This document shows, piece after piece, positions 8,478-22,108 of a stretch of 22,108 nucleotides of DNA (its first letter is position 1; every line of letters starts with the position of its first letter). The notes under the pieces were generated by a model. It ran no database searches. It had not been told where the DNA came from and saw nothing but the letters and a program-made list of their open reading frames with translations. Source of the stretch: a virus. The stretch covers positions 1-22,108 of IMG/VR virus record IMGVR_UViG_3300027608_002410. One strand, written 5' to 3'. Made by a program: the position numbers and the translations under genes.

Positions 8478-8526
8478 AAAAAAACGTGCAGTCAGGGCGC
8501 AACGGCGCGGACGGAAACAATGCACG
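8478..8526 (-). terminator. Probable terminator of the late operon
   Basis: On the - strand, CGTGCA and TGCACG (from 8526-8521 and 8490-8485) pair around a 30-base loop that holds a small inner hairpin (GCGC-CGTT-GCGC), and seven T residues follow at once (8484-8478). The stop codon of the 129-residue virion protein lies within the loop. The outer stem is only six pairs, so efficiency is uncertain. Confidence 0.5.
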
Positions 8527-8881
8527 AGTTGCCAAGTGCGGTTCCGGCCCGAGCACCCCACGTCGTAATCGCATTGTTTGGCACCAACGCAATGCCGCCG
8601 CCGATGCTGCTGCTGCCCGCCGCCAGTCTCATGCAATAGGTTGCGCCGTTGTCGCTTGAAATATCTACGAAATTCGTGGTGTCGAGGTTTTGCAGCATGA
8701 AAACGCCGGGAGTGTTGCCGATGTCGCCAAAGACCAGCGCCTCAAAGGTTGTGCCGATGCTCTGAGTGCTGTCGCTGCATTGCGAGCCGCTAATAGTCTT
8801 TTGTGTCGTTGCGGAGGCAGTAACCCGAGCGAGCGATTTCAAAAATTGAAATGTCCCAGAAAATGTAAATTCGTTAGGCAT
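8492..8881 (-). CDS. Small virion-associated protein (tentative)
   Basis: A protein of 129 residues, Gly/Ser/Thr-rich and probably all beta: FTFSGTFQFLKSLARVTAS, FEALVFGDIGNTPGVFMLQN, NFVDISSDNGATYCMRLAAG and a C-terminal strand (CIVSVRAVA). The central part resembles small structural proteins placed near tail genes in phages, but no specific family is certain. It is the last gene of the late operon, followed by a probable terminator. Two oppositely oriented copies of a 13-bp element flank its start codon. A consensus -35 box (TTGACA) lies upstream at 8915-8910 but has no good -10 partner. Confidence 0.6.
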   Translation of the reverse strand: MPNEFTFSGTFQFLKSLARVTASATTQKTISGSQCSDSTQSIGTTFEALVFGDIGNTPGVFMLQNLDTTNFVDISSDNGATYCMRLAAGSSSIGGGIALVPNNAITTWGARAGTALGNSCIVSVRAVAP

Positions 8882-8938: not shown

Positions 8939-9685
8939 TCAGAAAGGCGGTGGGTATAGGTTTACCGGGAGCAGCGGTTTGCTGCGGGAGGCAAGTTTGA
9001 TACGCCAGAAATTCAAGTGCGACTCCATGTTTCCTGTTGGGGTATGGTGATTTATGGTTTCGTGCTTGGAAAGATGATCGTGGCCGATGCGATTCCAATG
9101 ATAAGAATGGGTGCCTTGGAATTTTCGCTTGTCAAAGTATGAATTGGAGGCAATCCAACTATCGGAAGCAAGCACTGTGTCTGCCGGAAAGTTTTTGTAG
9201 CACCAATCAACTTCAGCCGGGGTGAGTCGCTCGAAAAGCGAAGTTGCCCATCCGCAGCAGGTTAGCTCCTTAGTCACATCATCCTCGTAGTGCATGATGT
9301 AATTTTGTCCACAGACCTGTAACGGCAATTCGTTGCGCTCGTTTACGTTGTTCCATGCCGCTACCATTTGCGTTATGTGATGCGGATCAATCCAATCGTC
9401 GTCGTCCAAAATTGTCCAGCAATCAGTTCGCACCATTTTCATGTTCACGATATGCTGATAGACCGGGCGTGTGTAAACGTCCTCGTCGTTGACTACTTCG
9501 ATGCGAAGTCGGTGCGAGTCCGGGATGTTGAGCAACTGAAGCGGCGTCGGATGTCGGTTGATTATGAGCAACCGCGCAAACTGGTAATTTTGATCTATAA
9601 ACGAGCGGATAGCGCGGGCGATGGTGTCGCGCCCGATGGTTTCCATAATGATGGTTACGGTTGGGTTGATTATGTGTGTTCGCAT
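8939..9685 (-). CDS. GT-A fold glycosyltransferase (family 2-like)
   Basis: A 248-residue protein with the layout of a family-2-type glycosyltransferase. The N-terminal nucleotide-binding strand (TVTIIMETIGRDTIARAIRS, residues 10-29) is followed by FIDQNY, where many GT2 enzymes have SxxxQ. The metal/sugar-nucleotide DxD site is WTILDDDDWIDP (Asp94-97). A later segment, PADTVLASDSWIASNSYFDK, suits the acceptor side. No membrane segment is visible, so it would be soluble. It starts four bases after the stop of a tail gene ending in Gly-Pro-Thr repeats, so the likely acceptor is that protein or another virion component; this is inferred from position. Its base composition is more AT-rich than the head genes. 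Confidence 0.85.
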   Translation of the reverse strand: MRTHIINPTVTIIMETIGRDTIARAIRSFIDQNYQFARLLIINRHPTPLQLLNIPDSHRLRIEVVNDEDVYTRPVYQHIVNMKMVRTDCWTILDDDDWIDPHHITQMVAAWNNVNERNELPLQVCGQNYIMHYEDDVTKELTCCGWATSLFERLTPAEVDWCYKNFPADTVLASDSWIASNSYFDKRKFQGTHSYHWNRIGHDHLSKHETINHHTPTGNMESHLNFWRIKLASRSKPLLPVNLYPPPF

Positions 9686-9689
9686 TATT

Positions 9690-10439
9690 TTAATAATAGC
9701 AATAGCATTCGCCGGTAGGTCCGGTGGGACCGGTAGGTCCGGTGGGACCGGTAGGTCCGGTGGGACCGGTAGGTCCGGTGGGACCGGTAGGTCCGGTGCC
9801 TGCCGTCCACGCCCAATTCGGCACCAGCCCCCAAATCAAATCTCCGGCAGACGTTGCTTTGCGAGCTTTTTGCAAATGCGTATTGGTAAGCTGGTCGATA
9901 CGAAGACTTGGTTTAAAGTCTGGAAAATCGCCCGGATCGGGGAACGGCGCATTCTCCATTGCGTTGACCACGCTTTTATTAGTTTGAACCGCACGAACGT
10001 ACGCAATAGGTTGCCTCCAGATATTGCTTACTCCAGCAGTGTTGGTGTGCATTGAGTTTCCCCAACTCGCGCCCCATTTTAGCTCTGGGCCTGCGGTAAG
10101 ATTTCCGGCAAAACTAAAAGTCATTTCCAACCAAACCCAATCACCGCTAGTCAAAGTCATTTTGTTGTCAATATCCGTGATCGGCGCGGTCAGCGTAAGG
10201 TTGCCTTCGTCGAGGAATATCCAACCGCGCCGAACGTAAGCGTAAATAGAAGTTAGTGCGCTTGAAGTATATCCATCGATATATACCTCAAAAGGATGCA
10301 GCTTAAGTCTTGCCGGTATGTCCAGCCCGGCGTCTGGGGTTCGGTCATTAGAATTGCTATCAGGCGTTGCGTTTGCGTCTGGCGATCTAGTTGGAACAAC
10401 CTTGCGGATTTGCTCTATTGTAGCATTAAGGTCTTCCAT
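9690..10439 (-). CDS. Tail/virion protein with collagen-like (Gly-Pro-Thr)9 C-terminus
   Basis: A protein of 249 residues. The first 45 residues are polar and probably flexible. Residues about 45-170 look like a beta-rich globular domain ([48 protein letters not shown]). A Pro/Asp-rich hinge and a Trp-rich patch ([11 protein letters not shown]) lead to nine GPT triplets and a short end, GECYCYY. GPT triplets form collagen-type triple helices, so the protein is probably a trimer, and the two closing Cys residues could lock the chains. In Bacillus BclA the Thr of GPT repeats carry sugars. The ATG overlaps the stop of the 715-residue gene (TAATG). A glycosyltransferase gene follows four bases after the stop. 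Confidence 0.8.
9714..9794 (-). repeat. 18-bp tandem repeat encoding the GPT collagen-like tail
   Basis: Four and a half copies of an 18-bp unit, each encoding Gly-Pro-Thr twice with alternating codons (GGT CCC ACC, then GGA CCT ACC). The copies are identical at the DNA level, so the array is recent or kept uniform by recombination, and its length is likely to vary between isolates. Confidence 0.95.
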
Positions 10440-12586
10440 TAGAACGTCGTTGCTTGAATCTTAGTCATTCGCCAAAGGTTATATTTCCAGTATTCAACAT
10501 CGGCGGAAAGCGTCACAAATCTTCCGGCATAACCGGATGCTGACGGCTCAGTGTCGCCCCACGCAATAGTTTCATTGATCCAAGGCCATTTAGGGTTTTC
10601 CGTTCCGGTGGTAAACGCGTGGCTTACCGCATTGGTTAATACTCCTGTTTCTCTAATGGCTGGAATAAAAAAGAAATCTTGAATTAGGTCAATAACACCG
10701 GGGTTTTCTAGTGTTATGAAACTTTGCGCCGCCTGCATTTCTGTTTGTGAACCATAAGTTTTGGTTCGTGTCATTTTTACTTCACGCGTTTTTCCGGTTC
10801 GTTTGTTCCAAACAATGTTTACACTCGGAGTTCCGTCGCGAGATACGGCGCTGTTTAGAGCAGCACCGTAAATTAGCGGTGGTGCGCTCATACTGCCGGT
10901 TGGGTAATCTACTACCGAAATGGAACTCGCATCACCACCAAAAGAAGTGGTGATCTTGGTGCCGTGAACGGATGAAATTGGTTGATAGGAAATTTCAGTT
11001 CCGGCTGTTTGGGCAATTGGAAAGGAAGGGGTTGCAATAATTTGCATTTTAATGCTAACAGGCGCACCTGTTTCTCCGTCCACTTCAGCGCGAGTAAATT
11101 CCGCTCCGGGTAGCGCACGAGTCTTGGTAATTTTGTATCGCAACGGTCCTGTGTTTTGTCCGCTGTATGGTTCGCTCGTAATAATTTTCAACCCGCCATC
11201 AATAGTTTCTCCTTCGGTGATATTGGAAGCAACATCAAGTTGGCGTTTGATCGTAAACACCGACCCATCGCGGTCAATCTCAGGTTCAGAAATAATTTCG
11301 GGGCCGGGATAAGCAAACGTCTGCACTTTCTTCTCAAGCAGCACGTTGTTGAGCGGTCTGTATGTAGTCTCTGTAACTACATTTGAAGATGCCGTCAGCG
11401 TTGCTTCAACACTACTACCAGCAATGATTTGCAACGTAGTTTGAACTGCTCCGCGTTGAATATCGTAATCATCTGCCGTTCTTAATGGCGCAGGCACCGT
11501 CCATGTTTCGGTGGTTTTTTTCCGGTGAAATTGAGTTACGGCTTCGTAACGAATGTCGGTTACGGTAGTGCCAACAACGGTTAAGCCTCCGGGGCTAGTG
11601 GTGTCAGCAACAAGTTGCACTTGTTGGTCCACGGCTCCGCGTTCGTTGTCGTAGAAATCATTGATCTGAATTGGGTAGGCTGGATTTCCTGCGCTGCCCG
11701 TTCCGTCGCTGTTGGTCTCTTCGATTTGCGTGCAAATTACAGAGGATTCGTCTAGCGCCTCAAAGGTTGTTTTAACCGTGGCCGTAAGGGTAGCGACCTG
11801 CGTGCTGGGATTCGCCAACACTGTTTTGCGTTGAATCTTAATTGCCCCAAACCTCTCATCGTATCGGGAGTTTGAAACCAACGGGCCGGGCAACTCCATC
11901 CAAACGCGAGTGATGTCAAAGAACAAATTTCCTAAATCCCCTTCACTTGGTTTGGACTCCTGCTTTATTAGATAAGCGGACTGCGACTGAATTGCCGCAG
12001 TTACAGTCCCGTTCCCGTGGCTTACGGTGACTGTCGGAGCGACCGTGTATCCGGATCCGCCGTTGGTCAGTAGAACGCCGACAATGGATCCGTCGCGAAT
12101 TTGAACCTTTCCCGCAGCGCCAGTGCCGTTTCCGCCGCTGAAAGCGAGCGTCGGTGCAGTGGAGTAGCCGCTCCCGGCGGAGGTTACGGTCAGGCCGGTG
12201 ACGACTTTTAACGTCGTCCCCTCGGTCAGCGGGGTGTCGGTCGCGGAAACGTAATTTCGGATGAAGATCGGAGCAGTCGATGCTTCGGAGGTGTACTTCT
12301 TGGAAATGTTGTATGCTTCCTGTCCGGTGCGCGTTGTTGTCGCCCAGATACGTCGCACCCACTGCTGAGTCCCTGTCCCCTCAATCTCCTTCTCCACTAA
12401 GAGCCGGAGATTGGTAAATCCTTTCCGTGGGGTGCCAATGTAGATCGGGGTGTAGCTGGAGTCCACGAGGACATCCTCCACCATCATCAGATCCTCCACG
12501 TTTTCTGTAGGGAATTGCGTGTGCGGTCGAGTCAGCCGGTCTTGCGGCTTGCCTGCTCCAAGATCCCGAGAGCCGCCGTAGTTCAT
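10439..12586 (-). CDS. Large virion structural protein, probably tail
   Basis: A 715-residue beta-rich protein. Near residues 135-195 are two copies of a Gly-rich motif often met in phage tail proteins: [20 protein letters not shown] and [20 protein letters not shown]. The rest is a series of strands with repeating layouts such as [16 protein letters not shown] and [16 protein letters not shown], each followed by a TxVTxxxY element, which suggests several related domains. The C-terminus is aromatic ([19 protein letters not shown]). It lies between the probable adaptor (ATGA overlap at 12583-12586) and the collagen-like tail protein, so a tail tube, hub or baseplate-like role is likely. GC content falls clearly within the gene, near 11950. 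Confidence 0.75.
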
Positions 12587-14241: not shown

Positions 14242-15921
14242 TTACGTTACGACAGGCGCACCGTCAATCGGGATCGCGCTGTTGACAACGACGAAGCCGG
14301 GGCAAACGCCGTCCGAACGCTCGATGAGGGCTGCACCCCAGACCGCTTCCGCGCCGATGGCGTGGTCGAGATCATGGTTGCGGTGCTCCTCGGTGCGCCG
14401 TCCCATCTGCGGGGAGATGCGGGAACCGTTGATGGAGCCGACGCCGCAGATGATCGCTTCCCGCCCAAAGGCGATGGAGCGGCCAACCGGCACGCCGAGA
14501 ACATTGCACTCCACAACGAGATCGCCAGCAAGAAACTGGCCGTCCGTGGTTTCCCCGGTGAGGCCGGTCGAGATGCCGTTGGTGAGCAGGATGTTGCGTC
14601 CGGAGTTTGCAGCATACTGGAAGATGCCGTATTTTCCGTTGTTCGCACCAGACTGACCGATGATCATCACGTAGCGGGCACTGGATCCCGCGGCAATGGT
14701 GTTGCCGTTGTGATAGGTCCAAGGCGCGTTGGAGAAGTAGCGCGTGAACTCGGGATACGGACTGAGGGCCGCGGCGTTGATGCCGTAGCCTCCGCCGATT
14801 GCCACCCCGGTTGCCGTTGTGGCGGTGCCGGTAGCGTCATAGTAACGAGCCGTAGCAGTGGTGTTCGTGAAGGCGACGCCGGAGCGGTTCGCCCATGTGC
14901 TGCCACTGCCCCACGTCAGGGTTGGAAGGTTCGCCGCCAAGTAGGTGCGAGGCGAGAGAAGCGATCCGATGGGACCGGCGTTGCCGTGATCTTTCTGGAA
15001 CCAGCGGTAAAGACCGATGCCGCTCCACTCGGAGTAGTTCCCCTTGAAGATTGGGTTTTCGGTGCCGCGAACGCCAGCGTAAGACTGAGCCTGAAGATAC
15101 GCGCTCTCGTAGTCCAAATGGCTCAAGCCATGATGGGTGCCAAAGAACATGTATTTTTCAGTGCGCGAGCCGCCGCTATCTTTCGGGCCGAGCGCCATTG
15201 GAAGCGCCCCGATGCCGGAGAGCTTGTTGCGGACGGTGGTGATGGTCGGAGTATCGACGTAGTGCGCCGTCTTAATGGTGGCGACAGTGCTGGGGCCAGC
15301 CGCCGTAAACGCATTGTTGCGGGCGGTAGCGTCAGCCTTTTCGATCATCAGACGAATCATGTCGTCGTTGCGTTTCTGGGCGTGCAACTGGCGCAGGCCG
15401 TCCACGATCATGGAGTCGAGGCGACCGCCGATCATGGTTTCGTCGCGGGCGATGGACTGGAAGCCCACACCGAACCACTGGCGTCCGATCTTCACTTGGA
15501 ACACGGATGCTTGGATCTTCTGCTCGTTGCCGATACGATCAGCCGAGCCTTGGGAGCCGGGACCGCCGAATCCACCATACGTGGTGATGTTGATGGTGTT
15601 GCCAGCGATTTTTTCAGTGTCGGTGATCTTGACGATGGCCTTTCCGCCGTCGCCCTCACCCATAAACCCGTCTGCAAACGGGTTTTCTCCATACATAGCT
15701 TCGGCACCAAGGACAACCTTGCGGCTCCACAGTTCCTCTTCGATCTTTGCATCCTGATCGGTTAGGTTGGCCTTGGTAGTGGCGTTAATTGCGGGGTAAG
15801 ACGCTCCGAGAACGGGCGTCACGAATGATGCGAAAGCAACTGCAAAAGCGACCGGCCAAGAAATGACCGAGAGCGCCGAAGCAACCGCTAACGCGAGACT
15901 GAGATGAAGTTTGTTTTTCAT
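14242..15921 (-). CDS. Major capsid protein, N4 gp56-like, with a hydrophobic N-terminus
   Basis: A 559-residue protein. After the N-terminus, the region LTDQDAKIEEELWSRKVVLG, then GDGGKAIVKITDTEKIAGNT, INITTYGGFGGPGSQG and DRIGNEQKI with VFQVKIGRQWFGV matches the N4-gp56-type (HK97-fold) major capsid layout: a loading element, then a diagnostic low-friction stress segment and a spine helix (GLRQLHAQKRNDDMIRLMIE). Position after a scaffold gene and before a terminator agrees. The first 40 residues are unexpected: MKNK, then about 34 mostly hydrophobic residues (LALAVASALSVISWPVAFAV) and VLGAS, like a signal peptide or membrane anchor. A GTG at 15822 would skip this part, but the CCAA leader 14 bases before ATG 15921 favours the long form. 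Not seen: any cleavage proof. Confidence 0.8.
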   Translation of the reverse strand: MKNKLHLSLALAVASALSVISWPVAFAVAFASFVTPVLGASYPAINATTKANLTDQDAKIEEELWSRKVVLGAEAMYGENPFADGFMGEGDGGKAIVKITDTEKIAGNTINITTYGGFGGPGSQGSADRIGNEQKIQASVFQVKIGRQWFGVGFQSIARDETMIGGRLDSMIVDGLRQLHAQKRNDDMIRLMIEKADATARNNAFTAAGPSTVATIKTAHYVDTPTITTVRNKLSGIGALPMALGPKDSGGSRTEKYMFFGTHHGLSHLDYESAYLQAQSYAGVRGTENPIFKGNYSEWSGIGLYRWFQKDHGNAGPIGSLLSPRTYLAANLPTLTWGSGSTWANRSGVAFTNTTATARYYDATGTATTATGVAIGGGYGINAAALSPYPEFTRYFSNAPWTYHNGNTIAAGSSARYVMIIGQSGANNGKYGIFQYAANSGRNILLTNGISTGLTGETTDGQFLAGDLVVECNVLGVPVGRSIAFGREAIICGVGSINGSRISPQMGRRTEEHRNHDLDHAIGAEAVWGAALIERSDGVCPGFVVVNSAIPIDGAPVVT

Positions 15922-15935
15922 AAGTAAGTTTCTAG

Positions 15936-15959
15936 TTGGTTGGTTGGTTGGTTGGTTGG
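15936..15959 (-). repeat. (CCAA)6 tetranucleotide repeat in the capsid-gene leader
   Basis: Six perfect CCAA units on the transcribed strand, ending 14 bases before the ATG at 15921. No Shine-Dalgarno sequence is present. A shorter copy lies at a similar distance before the SSB-like gene. Tetranucleotide arrays of this size can change in copy number by strand slippage. Confidence 0.95.
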
Positions 15960-15998
15960 TTTGCCTAAATCCCAAGTCTCCTGCTGCTGTCGCTTTGC

Positions 15999-17333: not shown

Positions 17334-17885
17334 TCATTCCGCCGTCCAGATCTCCGTCTGTCGTTTCAGAGGTGAAGGAAATTCCAATTTGTTGTCGGTG
17401 AAACTACGTTCCCGGAAAACTACGTGGTTTGTTGGCTGCACTGTAAGATGGTCGCTGTCGAGCCGCACAAAACTGAACTCTTTGGCTTGCTCAGGATAGG
17501 CTGAAAAACCGTCACCCACTGGCGACACGGAGAATAGATACTCCCCTATATGTTGCTTGCGGTTTGCCATGACCTTACACTCCAGCCCTCGCAAGAAGGT
17601 GTATTCCGTTGCCGACCAATCCCATCCGTAGCAATCCCATGTCTGAGCATCGCGTTCCGTCCATTTTCCTTGCGGCTTACTGCTGAACGCAATAGCGTGA
17701 GCGGGAATGTTGCGGTAGATCGCACCCGATTCAAGCATCACGGTGCAACCCCAAACGCGACCCGGATAACAAACCAGCCCATACCAGACAGCGGGGATGT
17801 AGCCGCACGGTTTTTTGTGGGTGTGTCGCGAATCCACCCAGACGTAAAGGTGGCGCGGAATTTCGCCTGTGAGCGTATTCCTCAT
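17334..17885 (-). CDS. Conserved-looking phage protein of the head region, unknown function
   Basis: A 183-residue beta-rich protein with many aromatic residues: HLYVWVDSRHTHKKPCGYIP, AVWYGLVCYPGRVWGCTVML, WDCYGWDWSATEYTFLRGL and a C-terminal part with VGDGFSAYPEQAKEFSFVRL. It resembles proteins found between lysis and head genes in related phages, but no function is known to me. It starts nine bases after the endolysin stop, with an A-rich stretch instead of a Shine-Dalgarno sequence. Confidence 0.65.
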   Translation of the reverse strand: MRNTLTGEIPRHLYVWVDSRHTHKKPCGYIPAVWYGLVCYPGRVWGCTVMLESGAIYRNIPAHAIAFSSKPQGKWTERDAQTWDCYGWDWSATEYTFLRGLECKVMANRKQHIGEYLFSVSPVGDGFSAYPEQAKEFSFVRLDSDHLTVQPTNHVVFRERSFTDNKLEFPSPLKRQTEIWTAE

Positions 17886-20129: not shown

Positions 20130-22108
20130 TTATTGTTCGTCGATGGAAATCCAAAGCACGGCGATGTTTCCGGCGTAGGCGTCCGCGATTCCGTTTCGTT
20201 TCAGCCAAAGCGAAAGAAAGGTTGCCCCGGCGGTGATATTCCACTGCTGGGACGTGAATTTTTGCGGATAAGGCTGAGTCGCCGGTCCCGCTTGATTGAG
20301 ATTCTGCACAGGCGACCCGCCTCCCGCGCCCCAACCCGGCCCCGCCATGCTATTGGTCGCGCCGTCGATGGCGGTGGTTTTCCAGTCTAGGCCAACATCG
20401 AAGTTCACGTTGTCCGTGGATGATGCGCTGCCGACAAATACCACCGTGACTTTAGCGGAGCGACCGGCCCATTCCGCTGGGTCGAGCAGAATTTGAAATG
20501 TGGTATCCGCCGCGTTAGGCATATAAGCGCCCTGAAATGTGCTGCCCAACGCAGTGAAGCTGGGAAACCCCCCGCTGTTGTAGAGCAGAATGTCGCTGGC
20601 CGAAATATACGTGCGCTTTTTCGTGGCTATCCCGCCGACCGCGTTGGTGGCTAGCGCCAATGCCGTAGCAACGCCAGTTCCCAGCCCGCTGATACCAGTA
20701 GCCACAGGCAAGCCAGTGCAGCTTGTCAAGGTGCCGCTTGACGGTGTGCCGAGAACAGGAGTGGTCAGCGCCATGCTCGTAGCTGTGGTTCCGCTCGGAA
20801 GAGCCAGAACGCCAGTTACGCTGGTGTTAATTGTTGCGCTTCCGCTAGTGCTGCCGCGAAGAACCACGCTGCCGCCTGTGCCGCCATTTACTCCGAGAGT
20901 TGCACTGCTTGTTCCCGTCAGCGTCGTAAAAGCGCCAGTGTTTGGCGTAGTGCCGATGGGTCCCGGTGTGGTCAGCGCGGTGGCGATGTCTGCCGAGGCT
21001 ATCGCACGATAGGCAGGTGCGCCTGTTGTCGCCGTTGCGAACAACGCCTGCGTGGCGGTTGCGCTGGTGGCTGCTGTCACTACTACGGTGCCGGATAGGT
21101 TAGGGAGCGCGATGGACTTGTTCGTGCCGCTTGCCGCGCCAGTGAATGTTGTGCGCGTTCCGGTGACTCCTAGCTCAATGCTGCCAGTGCCTGTGGTGTT
21201 TATGGAGCCGCCGCCGCCGCTGGTGTTAATGTTGCCGCCATAAGTGGTGTCGATGTATCCGCCGCCTGTGGTGCTGATGTATCCGCCGTTGAAGCCGGTG
21301 TTTATGGAGCCGCCACCTTCGCGGGTGTCGATGTTGCCGCCGGGGGACGCACCGCCCCCCGATGTGTTGATGGAACCACCATTGCCACCGAAAGTTCCTG
21401 ATCCGCTAGTGTTGATGCTGCCTCCATTAGCCACATCGCCGCTAGTATCTATGTTGCCTCCACTGCCACCTTCATATGGGCCTCTCGTGTCTATGTAGCC
21501 TCCCTGACCCTCATCGCTGCTGGTGTTGATAAACCCGCCGGGGTACCAGCCTGATACGCTTTTAGTAGTAATGCTTCCACCGGGAAGTCCCGTAGAATGA
21601 CCAGCCGTGTCGATGCTGCCGCCGTTAGCGGAGGTGTTAATGCTGCCCTCCATCGTGAGCGTGCCAGAGCCTCCCGCTGAGATCGTGATGCCATTGATAC
21701 TAGTCGCCGTGGCTGCTCCCAGCACCGGAGCAACAAACGTCTTGTTTGTGATTCCAGCCAGTGTGTTGGTCTGGTCAAGGACTGTCTTGCCTTCGATTGA
21801 AAGCACGCCGCTGCTAGCCGTTAAAGTGTTTGCCGTAGCATGGCCCAGTTCGATGCTGCCAACTCCGATTGCGGTAGTGGTAGATGCTGTGATACCAGAA
21901 ACAGGGAGCCCAGTGCAGTTTGTTAACGTGCCGCTTGATGGAGTGCCAAGTATTGGAGTTACAAGCGTCGGCGTGTTGGTCATCACTACGTTGCCAGTGC
22001 CGCTGGTAGAAAGCACTTGTGGCACACCGTTGCTTGCTGTGCTGCGGCCCAGCACTTTTACGCCTGCGCTTGCGTCAATGTTTAGCCCTAGATTTGTAAT
22101 CCCTTGGA
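20130..22108 (-). CDS. Tail fibre/receptor-binding protein, N-terminus cut by window edge
   Basis: More than 650 residues, open to the right edge (the frame runs on as far as the last base), so the N-terminal virion-attachment part is missing. The chain is Gly/Ser/Thr-rich. Two segments carry the phage-fibre motif TPVLGTPSSGTLTSCTGLP (one reads TPILGTPSSGTLTNCTGLP). Between them is an array of GG-x-I-(N/D)-T repeats, probably a beta-solenoid shaft. The C-terminal 160 residues (from KKRTYISASDILLYNSGG) are a different, non-repetitive beta domain with aromatic patches, the likely receptor-binding head. The Ala-rich coiled-coil gene follows after four bases. Fibre function is clear from the repeats; the receptor is unknown. 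Confidence 0.85.
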   Translation of the reverse strand, partial: QGITNLGLNIDASAGVKVLGRSTASNGVPQVLSTSGTGNVVMTNTPTLVTPILGTPSSGTLTNCTGLPVSGITASTTTAIGVGSIELGHATANTLTASSGVLSIEGKTVLDQTNTLAGITNKTFVAPVLGAATATSINGITISAGGSGTLTMEGSINTSANGGSIDTAGHSTGLPGGSITTKSVSGWYPGGFINTSSDEGQGGYIDTRGPYEGGSGGNIDTSGDVANGGSINTSGSGTFGGNGGSINTSGGGASPGGNIDTREGGGSINTGFNGGYISTTGGGYIDTTYGGNINTSGGGGSINTTGTGSIELGVTGTRTTFTGAASGTNKSIALPNLSGTVVVTAATSATATQALFATATTGAPAYRAIASADIATALTTPGPIGTTPNTGAFTTLTGTSSATLGVNGGTGGSVVLRGSTSGSATINTSVTGVLALPSGTTATSMALTTPVLGTPSSGTLTSCTGLPVATGISGLGTGVATALALATNAVGGIATKKRTYISASDILLYNSGGFPSFTALGSTFQGAYMPNAADTTFQILLDPAEWAGRSAKVTVVFVGSASSTDNVNFDVGLDWKTTAIDGATNSMAGPGWGAGGGSPVQNLNQAGPATQPYPQKFTSQQWNITAGATFLSLWLKRNGIADAYAGNIAVLWISIDEQ
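21186..21655 (-). repeat. GG-x-I-(N/D)-T coding repeat array in the tail fibre
   Basis: The array holds about 14 irregularly spaced copies of a six-residue core: GGSINT, GGNIDT, GGYIDT, GGFINT, GGSIDT, GGSITT, GGYIST, GGNINT and one EGSINT. Gaps of about 3-13 residues rich in Gly, Ser and Tyr separate them. The DNA core is degenerate (for example GGAGGCAGCATCAACAC-like variants), so it is protein-level selection more than fresh duplication. Spacing suits turns of a beta-solenoid. Confidence 0.85.

What the first reader, a model, noticed from the sequence alone, without database searches (positions are those of the whole stretch)
9714..10439. Collagen-like GPT tail coded next to a glycosyltransferase
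The tail protein ends in nine Gly-Pro-Thr triplets and CYCYY, and the next gene, four bases on, is a GT-A glycosyltransferase. GPT repeats in Bacillus BclA are O-glycosylated on Thr. This pair therefore looks like a phage that builds a trimeric, sugar-coated fibre, with a possible cysteine lock at the end. A dedicated phage enzyme for this would be unusual.
Basis: partly seen in the sequence, partly recalled or inferred. Interest (0 to 1): 0.6.

Follow-up and report, generated by a model that had tools for sequence, protein, structure and literature searches.

The report
Phage collagen-like protein with glycosyltransferase cassette
This phage carries a gene for a collagen-like particle protein ending in Gly-Pro-Thr repeats, directly followed by a sugar-attaching enzyme gene; the pair stays together across several phage backgrounds, and the enzyme recurs beside an unrelated repeat-bearing protein, so it probably sugar-coats the threonines, though no chemistry has been shown.

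Summary
In detail: window 9690-10439(-) encodes 249 aa ending TAG-T-(GPT)9-GECYCYY; four bases on, 8939-9685(-) encodes a soluble GT-A/GT2 glycosyltransferase (PF00535, DDDD motif). In nine distinct viral contigs including the window's, the enzyme directly follows the same repeat protein (one of these GTs is cut off by a contig end); in one the stop and start codons overlap. Genes outside this three-gene cassette mostly differ between backgrounds. A distant 149-kb phage contig (L036) has a 54%-identical enzyme domain, fused to a second GT related to Che8 gp108, beside an unrelated protein with about 30 Gly-X-Y triplets, mostly GPT. No enzyme relative without repeats was found. Thr (or Ser) fills the Y position in 132 of 137 triplets although all four Thr codons are used. 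In 80 other viral GPT loci, glycosyltransferases and 2OG-Fe(II) oxygenases are enriched just downstream, not upstream. The cysteine lock is private to this lineage. Best reading: a virion collagen-like stalk O-glycosylated on Thr by its own phage enzyme (confidence 0.7, no biochemistry). The ingredients are each known; joining them in a mobile phage cassette appears to be a new variant.

The parts
9690..10439 (-). 249-aa virion-type protein: N-domain (aa 1-212, no known family) plus C-terminal (GPT)9 collagen-like tract and GECYCYY end
   Evidence: ORF; repeats; conserved N-domain in relatives; Pfam Collagen 18.2 bits, below cut-off
9712..9798 (-). perfect 18-bp tandem array encoding the GPT triplets
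   Evidence: Tandem Repeats Finder; codon comparison
9690..9710 (-). lineage-specific ECYCYY C-terminus and stop; not conserved
   Evidence: relatives end in PSGS, ATGP, PSGP, ASGF, PSGF, PSGL
8939..9685 (-). 248-aa GT-A/GT2 glycosyltransferase, no transmembrane-looking segment by eye, invariant DDDD at aa 94-97
   Evidence: PF00535 E 3.1e-5 above cut-off; alignment A6; Foldseek to AvpGT, SpsA, TarP with a low-confidence model
10439..12586 (-). 715-aa protein upstream; its C-terminal ~290 aa is shared with 363-403-aa proteins at the same place in relatives (third cassette gene)
   Evidence: all-against-all; PHROG head closure/virion structural hits to its N-terminal third
14242..15975 (-). major capsid protein (Phage_capsid_3), marks the structural operon
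   Evidence: PF13252 E 1.8e-5, phrog_334 major head protein

Best explanation
A late-operon cassette makes a virion protein whose C-terminal Gly-Pro/Ala-Thr tract forms, or is meant to form, a trimeric collagen-like stalk, and its own cytosolic GT2 enzyme O-glycosylates the Thr residues in the Y position before the virion is released, using a host nucleotide sugar. Shown: the gene pair, its conservation in several genomic backgrounds, re-use of the enzyme beside an unrelated GPT carrier, near-invariance of Thr/Ser in Y despite synonymous codon drift, a GT2 profile match with an intact DxD-type motif. Inferred: co-translation (stop/start overlap in L004, 4-bp gap here), Thr as acceptor, glycosylation before or during trimerisation, and that the sugars stabilise the helix (as glycosylated Thr does in Riftia cuticle collagen) and/or coat the fibre.
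For: Nine distinct contigs (window/L002 counted once) carry the GT relative directly behind the GPT/GAT gene; in L007/L025 the GT runs off the contig. L036, a 148,872-bp contig with no detectable window capsid, has a 54%-identical GT domain behind a 534-aa protein with no similarity to the window carrier outside the repeats. Window and the L003/L004/L006/L008/L009 group share only the three cassette genes in the sequence held. Y position Thr 126 and Ser 6 of 137 triplets, codons ACC 39, ACT 37, ACA 29, ACG 21; X is Pro 101, Ala 29. GT under purifying selection: window v relatives dN 0.15-0.23 against dS above 1. In L036 the GT is fused to a domain 36% identical to Che8 gp108 and 40% to Gordonia phage Mareelih gp91, and Che8 glycosylates its virion (PMC12363180). 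Base rate in 80 other GPT loci: GT in the first two downstream ORFs of 8 of 55 loci, upstream 0 of 61, Fisher p 0.0019. Glycosylated Thr stabilises a natural collagen (PMC11766948, PMC6953826).
Against: No biochemistry. The GT relatives are few and mostly one clade, and pattern-based searches could miss GT relatives without repeats. Thr is the commonest Y residue of bacterial collagens anyway (about 32-48%, PMC8968730), and most viral GPT loci sampled have no GT within two genes, so GPT does not need one. The sequence similarity of the window GT itself to the Che8 enzymes is marginal (E 0.009).
Confidence: 0.7

Rival explanations
1. The GT modifies the host surface (LPS, capsule or other glycan receptor), so that fibre and receptor-masking enzyme move together as an adsorption/superinfection-exclusion module.
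For: GT genes near tail-fibre genes are commonly read this way (e.g. pelagimyophages, PMC7029224). The GT C-terminal half is mosaic between otherwise mostly 93-100% identical cassettes (L004 v L006), as expected for glycan diversification.
Against: Short enzyme with no obvious membrane anchor, at the end of a structural module, overlapping stop/start with the repeat gene in L004; the only element shared with the distant L036 phage's carrier is the GPT tract, not a receptor-binding domain.
Confidence: 0.14
2. The GT glycosylates a different virion protein (for example the capsid or the carrier's N-domain) and the GPT neighbour is incidental.
For: In Che8, Corndog and Myrna the acceptors are capsid and tail tube proteins, not collagen (PMC12363180, PMC12619734).
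Against: The capsid is not shared between backgrounds (window v L021 24%; not found in L036), nor is the N-domain with L036; the GPT tract is the only common candidate seen.
Confidence: 0.1
3. DNA or nucleotide glycosylation enzyme, unrelated to the repeat protein.
For: Some phage GTs act on DNA (cited in PMC10202952 and PMC12619734).
Against: Position at the end of a structural cassette, co-mobility with repeat genes, no base-hypermodification genes recognised in the families searched here (not every ORF was scanned).
Confidence: 0.03

Closest known systems
Mycobacteriophage virion glycosylation (Che8 gp108-110, Corndog gp38, Myrna; Freeman et al. 2023, as cited in PMC12363180)
   Same: Phage-encoded GTs act on the phage's own virion proteins; the L036 fusion contains a domain homologous to Che8 gp108.
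   Different: Acceptors there are capsid and tail tube proteins and in Che8 the GTs lie at the far end of the genome, not beside the acceptor gene; here the GT is coupled to a collagen-like carrier, and the window GT itself is only marginally similar.
Bacillus BclA exosporium collagen glycosylation
   Same: GPT-rich Gly-X-Y region with Thr as likely O-glycan acceptor.
   Different: Spore protein with other N- and C-domains; enzymes are of the bacterium, not a phage; no direct sequence comparison was run.
Mimivirus L230 (collagen lysyl hydroxylase/glucosyltransferase, PMC9614988)
   Same: Virus encodes its own enzyme that glycosylates collagen-like viral proteins.
   Different: GT25/PLOD type acting on hydroxylysine in a eukaryotic virus; here GT2, Lys-free repeats, tailed phage.
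Riftia cuticle collagen (PMC11766948, PMC6953826)
   Same: Glycosylated Thr in the Y position stabilises a triple helix.
   Different: Animal collagen; only an analogy of mechanism.
E. coli O157 prophage collagen-like proteins EPclA/B (PMC3368898)
   Same: Collagen-like segments in phage fibre proteins.
   Different: GPK/GPQ-type triplets and unglycosylated when recombinant; stability ascribed to Pro content, charge and trimerisation domains.

Membership tests
GT2 / GT-A glycosyltransferase (PF00535) | Profile match above curated cut-off | tested here: met
   24.4 bits v cut-off 23.3, E 3.1e-5; L036 C-domain 27.3 bits; L021 GT only 16.4, below cut-off
GT2 / GT-A glycosyltransferase (PF00535) | DxD-type metal/nucleotide-sugar motif conserved | tested here: met
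   DDDD 94-97 invariant in all members aligned
GT2 / GT-A glycosyltransferase (PF00535) | GT-A fold | tested here: inconclusive
   Model pLDDT 48.5; Foldseek still ranks AvpGT, SpsA, TarP first, E about 1e-4
Collagen (PF01391) | Profile match above curated cut-off | tested here: not met
   Window protein 18.2 bits v 27.2, tract only 9-10 triplets; the L036 carrier passes at 52.3. Called collagen-like, not a Pfam Collagen member
Collagen (PF01391) | Uninterrupted Gly-X-Y run | tested here: met
   10 triplets at aa 216-245; 11-24 in other cassette relatives, 34 in the L036 carrier
Collagen (PF01391) | Forms a triple helix | not testable with these tools
   Carrier model pLDDT 42.4, no trimer prediction offered
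Virion-glycosylating phage GTs (Che8 type) | Sequence homology to Che8 enzymes | tested here: inconclusive
   Window GT v gp108 E 0.009; but L036 N-half v gp108 36% over 185 aa, E 7.6e-25
Virion-glycosylating phage GTs (Che8 type) | Glycan found on a virion protein | not testable with these tools
   Needs mass spectrometry
BclA family | GPT-rich tract with Thr in Y | tested here: met
BclA family | Globular C-terminal domain after the collagen region | tested here: not met
   Only GECYCYY follows the repeat; no Pfam match outside the repeat

The most novel reading that the evidence does not exclude
Phages commonly run their own collagen maturation: collagen-like fibre genes are followed by modifying enzymes (GT2, GT25/PLOD-like, 2OG-Fe(II) oxygenases, methyltransferases) that move with the repeats as cassettes, and Thr glycosylation replaces hydroxyproline in stabilising the triple helix; the window holds a minimal two-gene form.
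Probability: 0.4. Interest if true: 0.75.

Novelty: new variant of a known kind. Interest (0 to 1): 0.6.

Why it matters
It would give a compact, bacterial-virus-encoded system for O-glycosylating collagen-like repeats, testable with two genes, and would explain how phages keep hydroxyproline-free GPT and GAT stalks stable. It also suggests that many GTs filed as 'auxiliary metabolic' or 'O-antigen' genes next to fibres act on the phage's own fibre.

Tried and rejected
Cysteine lock: rejected as a general feature. Homologues in isolated phages: none for either window protein. Homologue in bacterial genomes: only a distant Nocardioides GT2, 27% over part, so no prophage copy was found. AlphaFold models of GT and carrier were low confidence (48.5, 42.4), so the N-domain fold was not searched and the GT fold result is only indicative. 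PDB sequence search gave only marginal hits. Family search for PF13252 across the relatives' contigs rang nowhere, controls included, so it was not used. Rfam: nothing. Whether GT allele and GPT v GAT repeat type correlate was looked at by eye and no clean link was seen. The complementary-strand ORF with GPV repeats (9724-9987 +) is just the reverse reading of the repeat.

Full report
What is there. The window is a 22,108-bp viral metagenome fragment; contig L002 is identical over the 16.6 kb compared and longer. On the minus strand a structural module runs from a major capsid protein (14242-15975, PF13252 and phrog_334) through a 339-aa and a 715-aa protein to the 249-aa repeat protein (9690-10439), the glycosyltransferase (8939-9685) and a 129-aa protein (8492-8881). 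The repeat protein has a 212-aa N-domain without a family and a C-terminal (GPT)9 tract; the DNA there is a perfect 18-bp tandem repeat. The GT matches Glycos_transf_2 just above cut-off. No Shine-Dalgarno-like sequence is evident in the bases just before its ATG (read), and in L004 the repeat gene's stop overlaps the GT's ATG (ATGA), which suggests translational coupling (inference).

Do repeats and enzyme travel together? Separate searches with carrier and enzyme reached the same contigs. Counting window/L002 once, nine distinct contigs carry the carrier with the GT directly behind it; in L007/L025 the GT is cut by the contig end, and the cassettes of L005, L006 and L007 look identical, so they are not independent. 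The carriers' tails differ: pure GPT (window 9, L005/L006/L007 10, L021 23) or mixed GPT/GAT (L003, L004, L008, L009), nearly all with Thr in Y. L021 shows a GT at 71% but a carrier N-domain at only 57%: the enzyme is the better conserved partner. The genes around differ: between the window and the L003/L004/L006/L008/L009 group only three genes are shared in the loci held (C-terminal part of the 715-aa protein, carrier, GT), so the cassette appears to be mobile. The MCP of the window is 24% identical to that of L021 and was not detected in the contigs of L036 and L005.

The independent case. The distant relative L036 (148,872-bp contig) has a 469-aa GT whose C-terminal half is 54% identical to the window enzyme. 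Its upstream neighbour is a 534-aa protein with 34 Gly-X-Y triplets, mostly GPT, passing the Pfam Collagen cut-off, and with no similarity to the window carrier outside the repeats. The N-terminal half of that GT is homologous to Che8 gp108 (36%) and to Mareelih gp91 (40%). Che8 virions are glycosylated by phage-encoded GTs, gp110 being named as essential for capsid glycosylation (PMC12363180; the primary paper is not held). A methyltransferase gene follows. So the enzyme family is tied to the repeat, not to one carrier.

Selection on Thr. Over eight carriers, Y is Thr in 126 and Ser in 6 of 137 triplets, while X alternates Pro (101) and Ala (29) and all four Thr codons are used. The hydroxyl residue is held while codons drift and X varies. 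Against over-reading: Thr is also the commonest Y residue in bacterial collagens generally (32-48%, PMC8968730); 92% is well above that.

Base rate. Among the first two same-strand ORFs of 120 aa or more downstream (93 ORFs, 55 loci) Pfam found GT2 in 7, a GT25-PLOD protein in 1, and 2OG-Fe(II) oxygenase in 10; among 92 upstream ORFs (ORFs of 800 aa or more left out) no GT and one oxygenase. GT by locus: 8/55 v 0/61, Fisher p 0.0019. These GT2s are mostly another subfamily (about 350 aa, several with TPR repeats), also found in the annotated phage DSL-LC01 in the same run of genes as two collagen genes. Most GPT loci still have no GT within two genes, so the association is real but partial.

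Mechanism. Shown: gene architecture, linkage, conservation, motif. From the literature: glycosylated Thr can stabilise a triple helix (Riftia; PMC11766948, PMC6953826) and phages can glycosylate their virions. Inferred: the GT works in the cytosol on nascent or unassembled carrier, using a host donor; the sugar stabilises or coats the stalk. The GT C-terminal half is mosaic between L004 and L006 (56-70% DNA identity against 93-100% in most of the flanks), hinting that sugar or acceptor choice varies between sister phages.

The cysteine end is found only in the window/L002 lineage; the others end in short tails such as PSGS, PSGP, ASGF or ATGP, so a lock is at most a private trait.

Limits. No biochemistry; the GT clade is small; the homology searches use short peptide patterns and may miss members; the structure models were weak.

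Noticed in passing
L038:2798-7196: A 7.2-kb viral contig has a GPT carrier with a run of 118 Gly-X-Y triplets followed by a 2OG-Fe(II) oxygenase and a 607-aa GT25 + PLOD-GT + 2OG-oxygenase protein, i.e. a procollagen lysyl hydroxylase/glycosyltransferase-like enzyme resembling mimivirus L230.
   Followed up: partly
A7: first downstream ORFs of L038-L117: 2OG-Fe(II) oxygenases (possible prolyl hydroxylases) occur in 10 of 93 ORFs downstream of viral GPT genes but 1 of 92 upstream.
   Followed up: partly
L004:9148-9448 v L006: The C-terminal half of the GT is a different allele (56-70% DNA identity) in cassettes that are otherwise mostly 93-100% identical, a mosaic exchange.
   Followed up: partly
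L036:6781-7344; L098:7245-7823; L105:2637-4250: Methyltransferases next to, or fused with, the GT near GPT genes; possible sugar methylation.
   Followed up: no
L158:4433-6004 (phage DSL-LC01): A gene annotated tryptophan halogenase lies between the collagen genes and the GT.
   Followed up: no
window 20130-22106 (-): Second repeat-rich, fibre-like protein with many GGSINTSG-type units.
   Followed up: no
window 17334-17885 (-): Protein matching phrog_3704, annotated ferredoxin (E 4e-18), in the structural half of the contig.
   Followed up: no
L003:9672-10142, L005:6970-7563, L009:10161-10373: A conserved stretch reading ...SLQTRTKSGPVIRRVSPPRLRQYACTH... recurs downstream of the cassette; no Rfam match in L003, L006, L009.
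   Followed up: partly
L021:7567-12687 (-): 1706-aa protein with weak sigma-70 region 2 and 4 matches.
   Followed up: no
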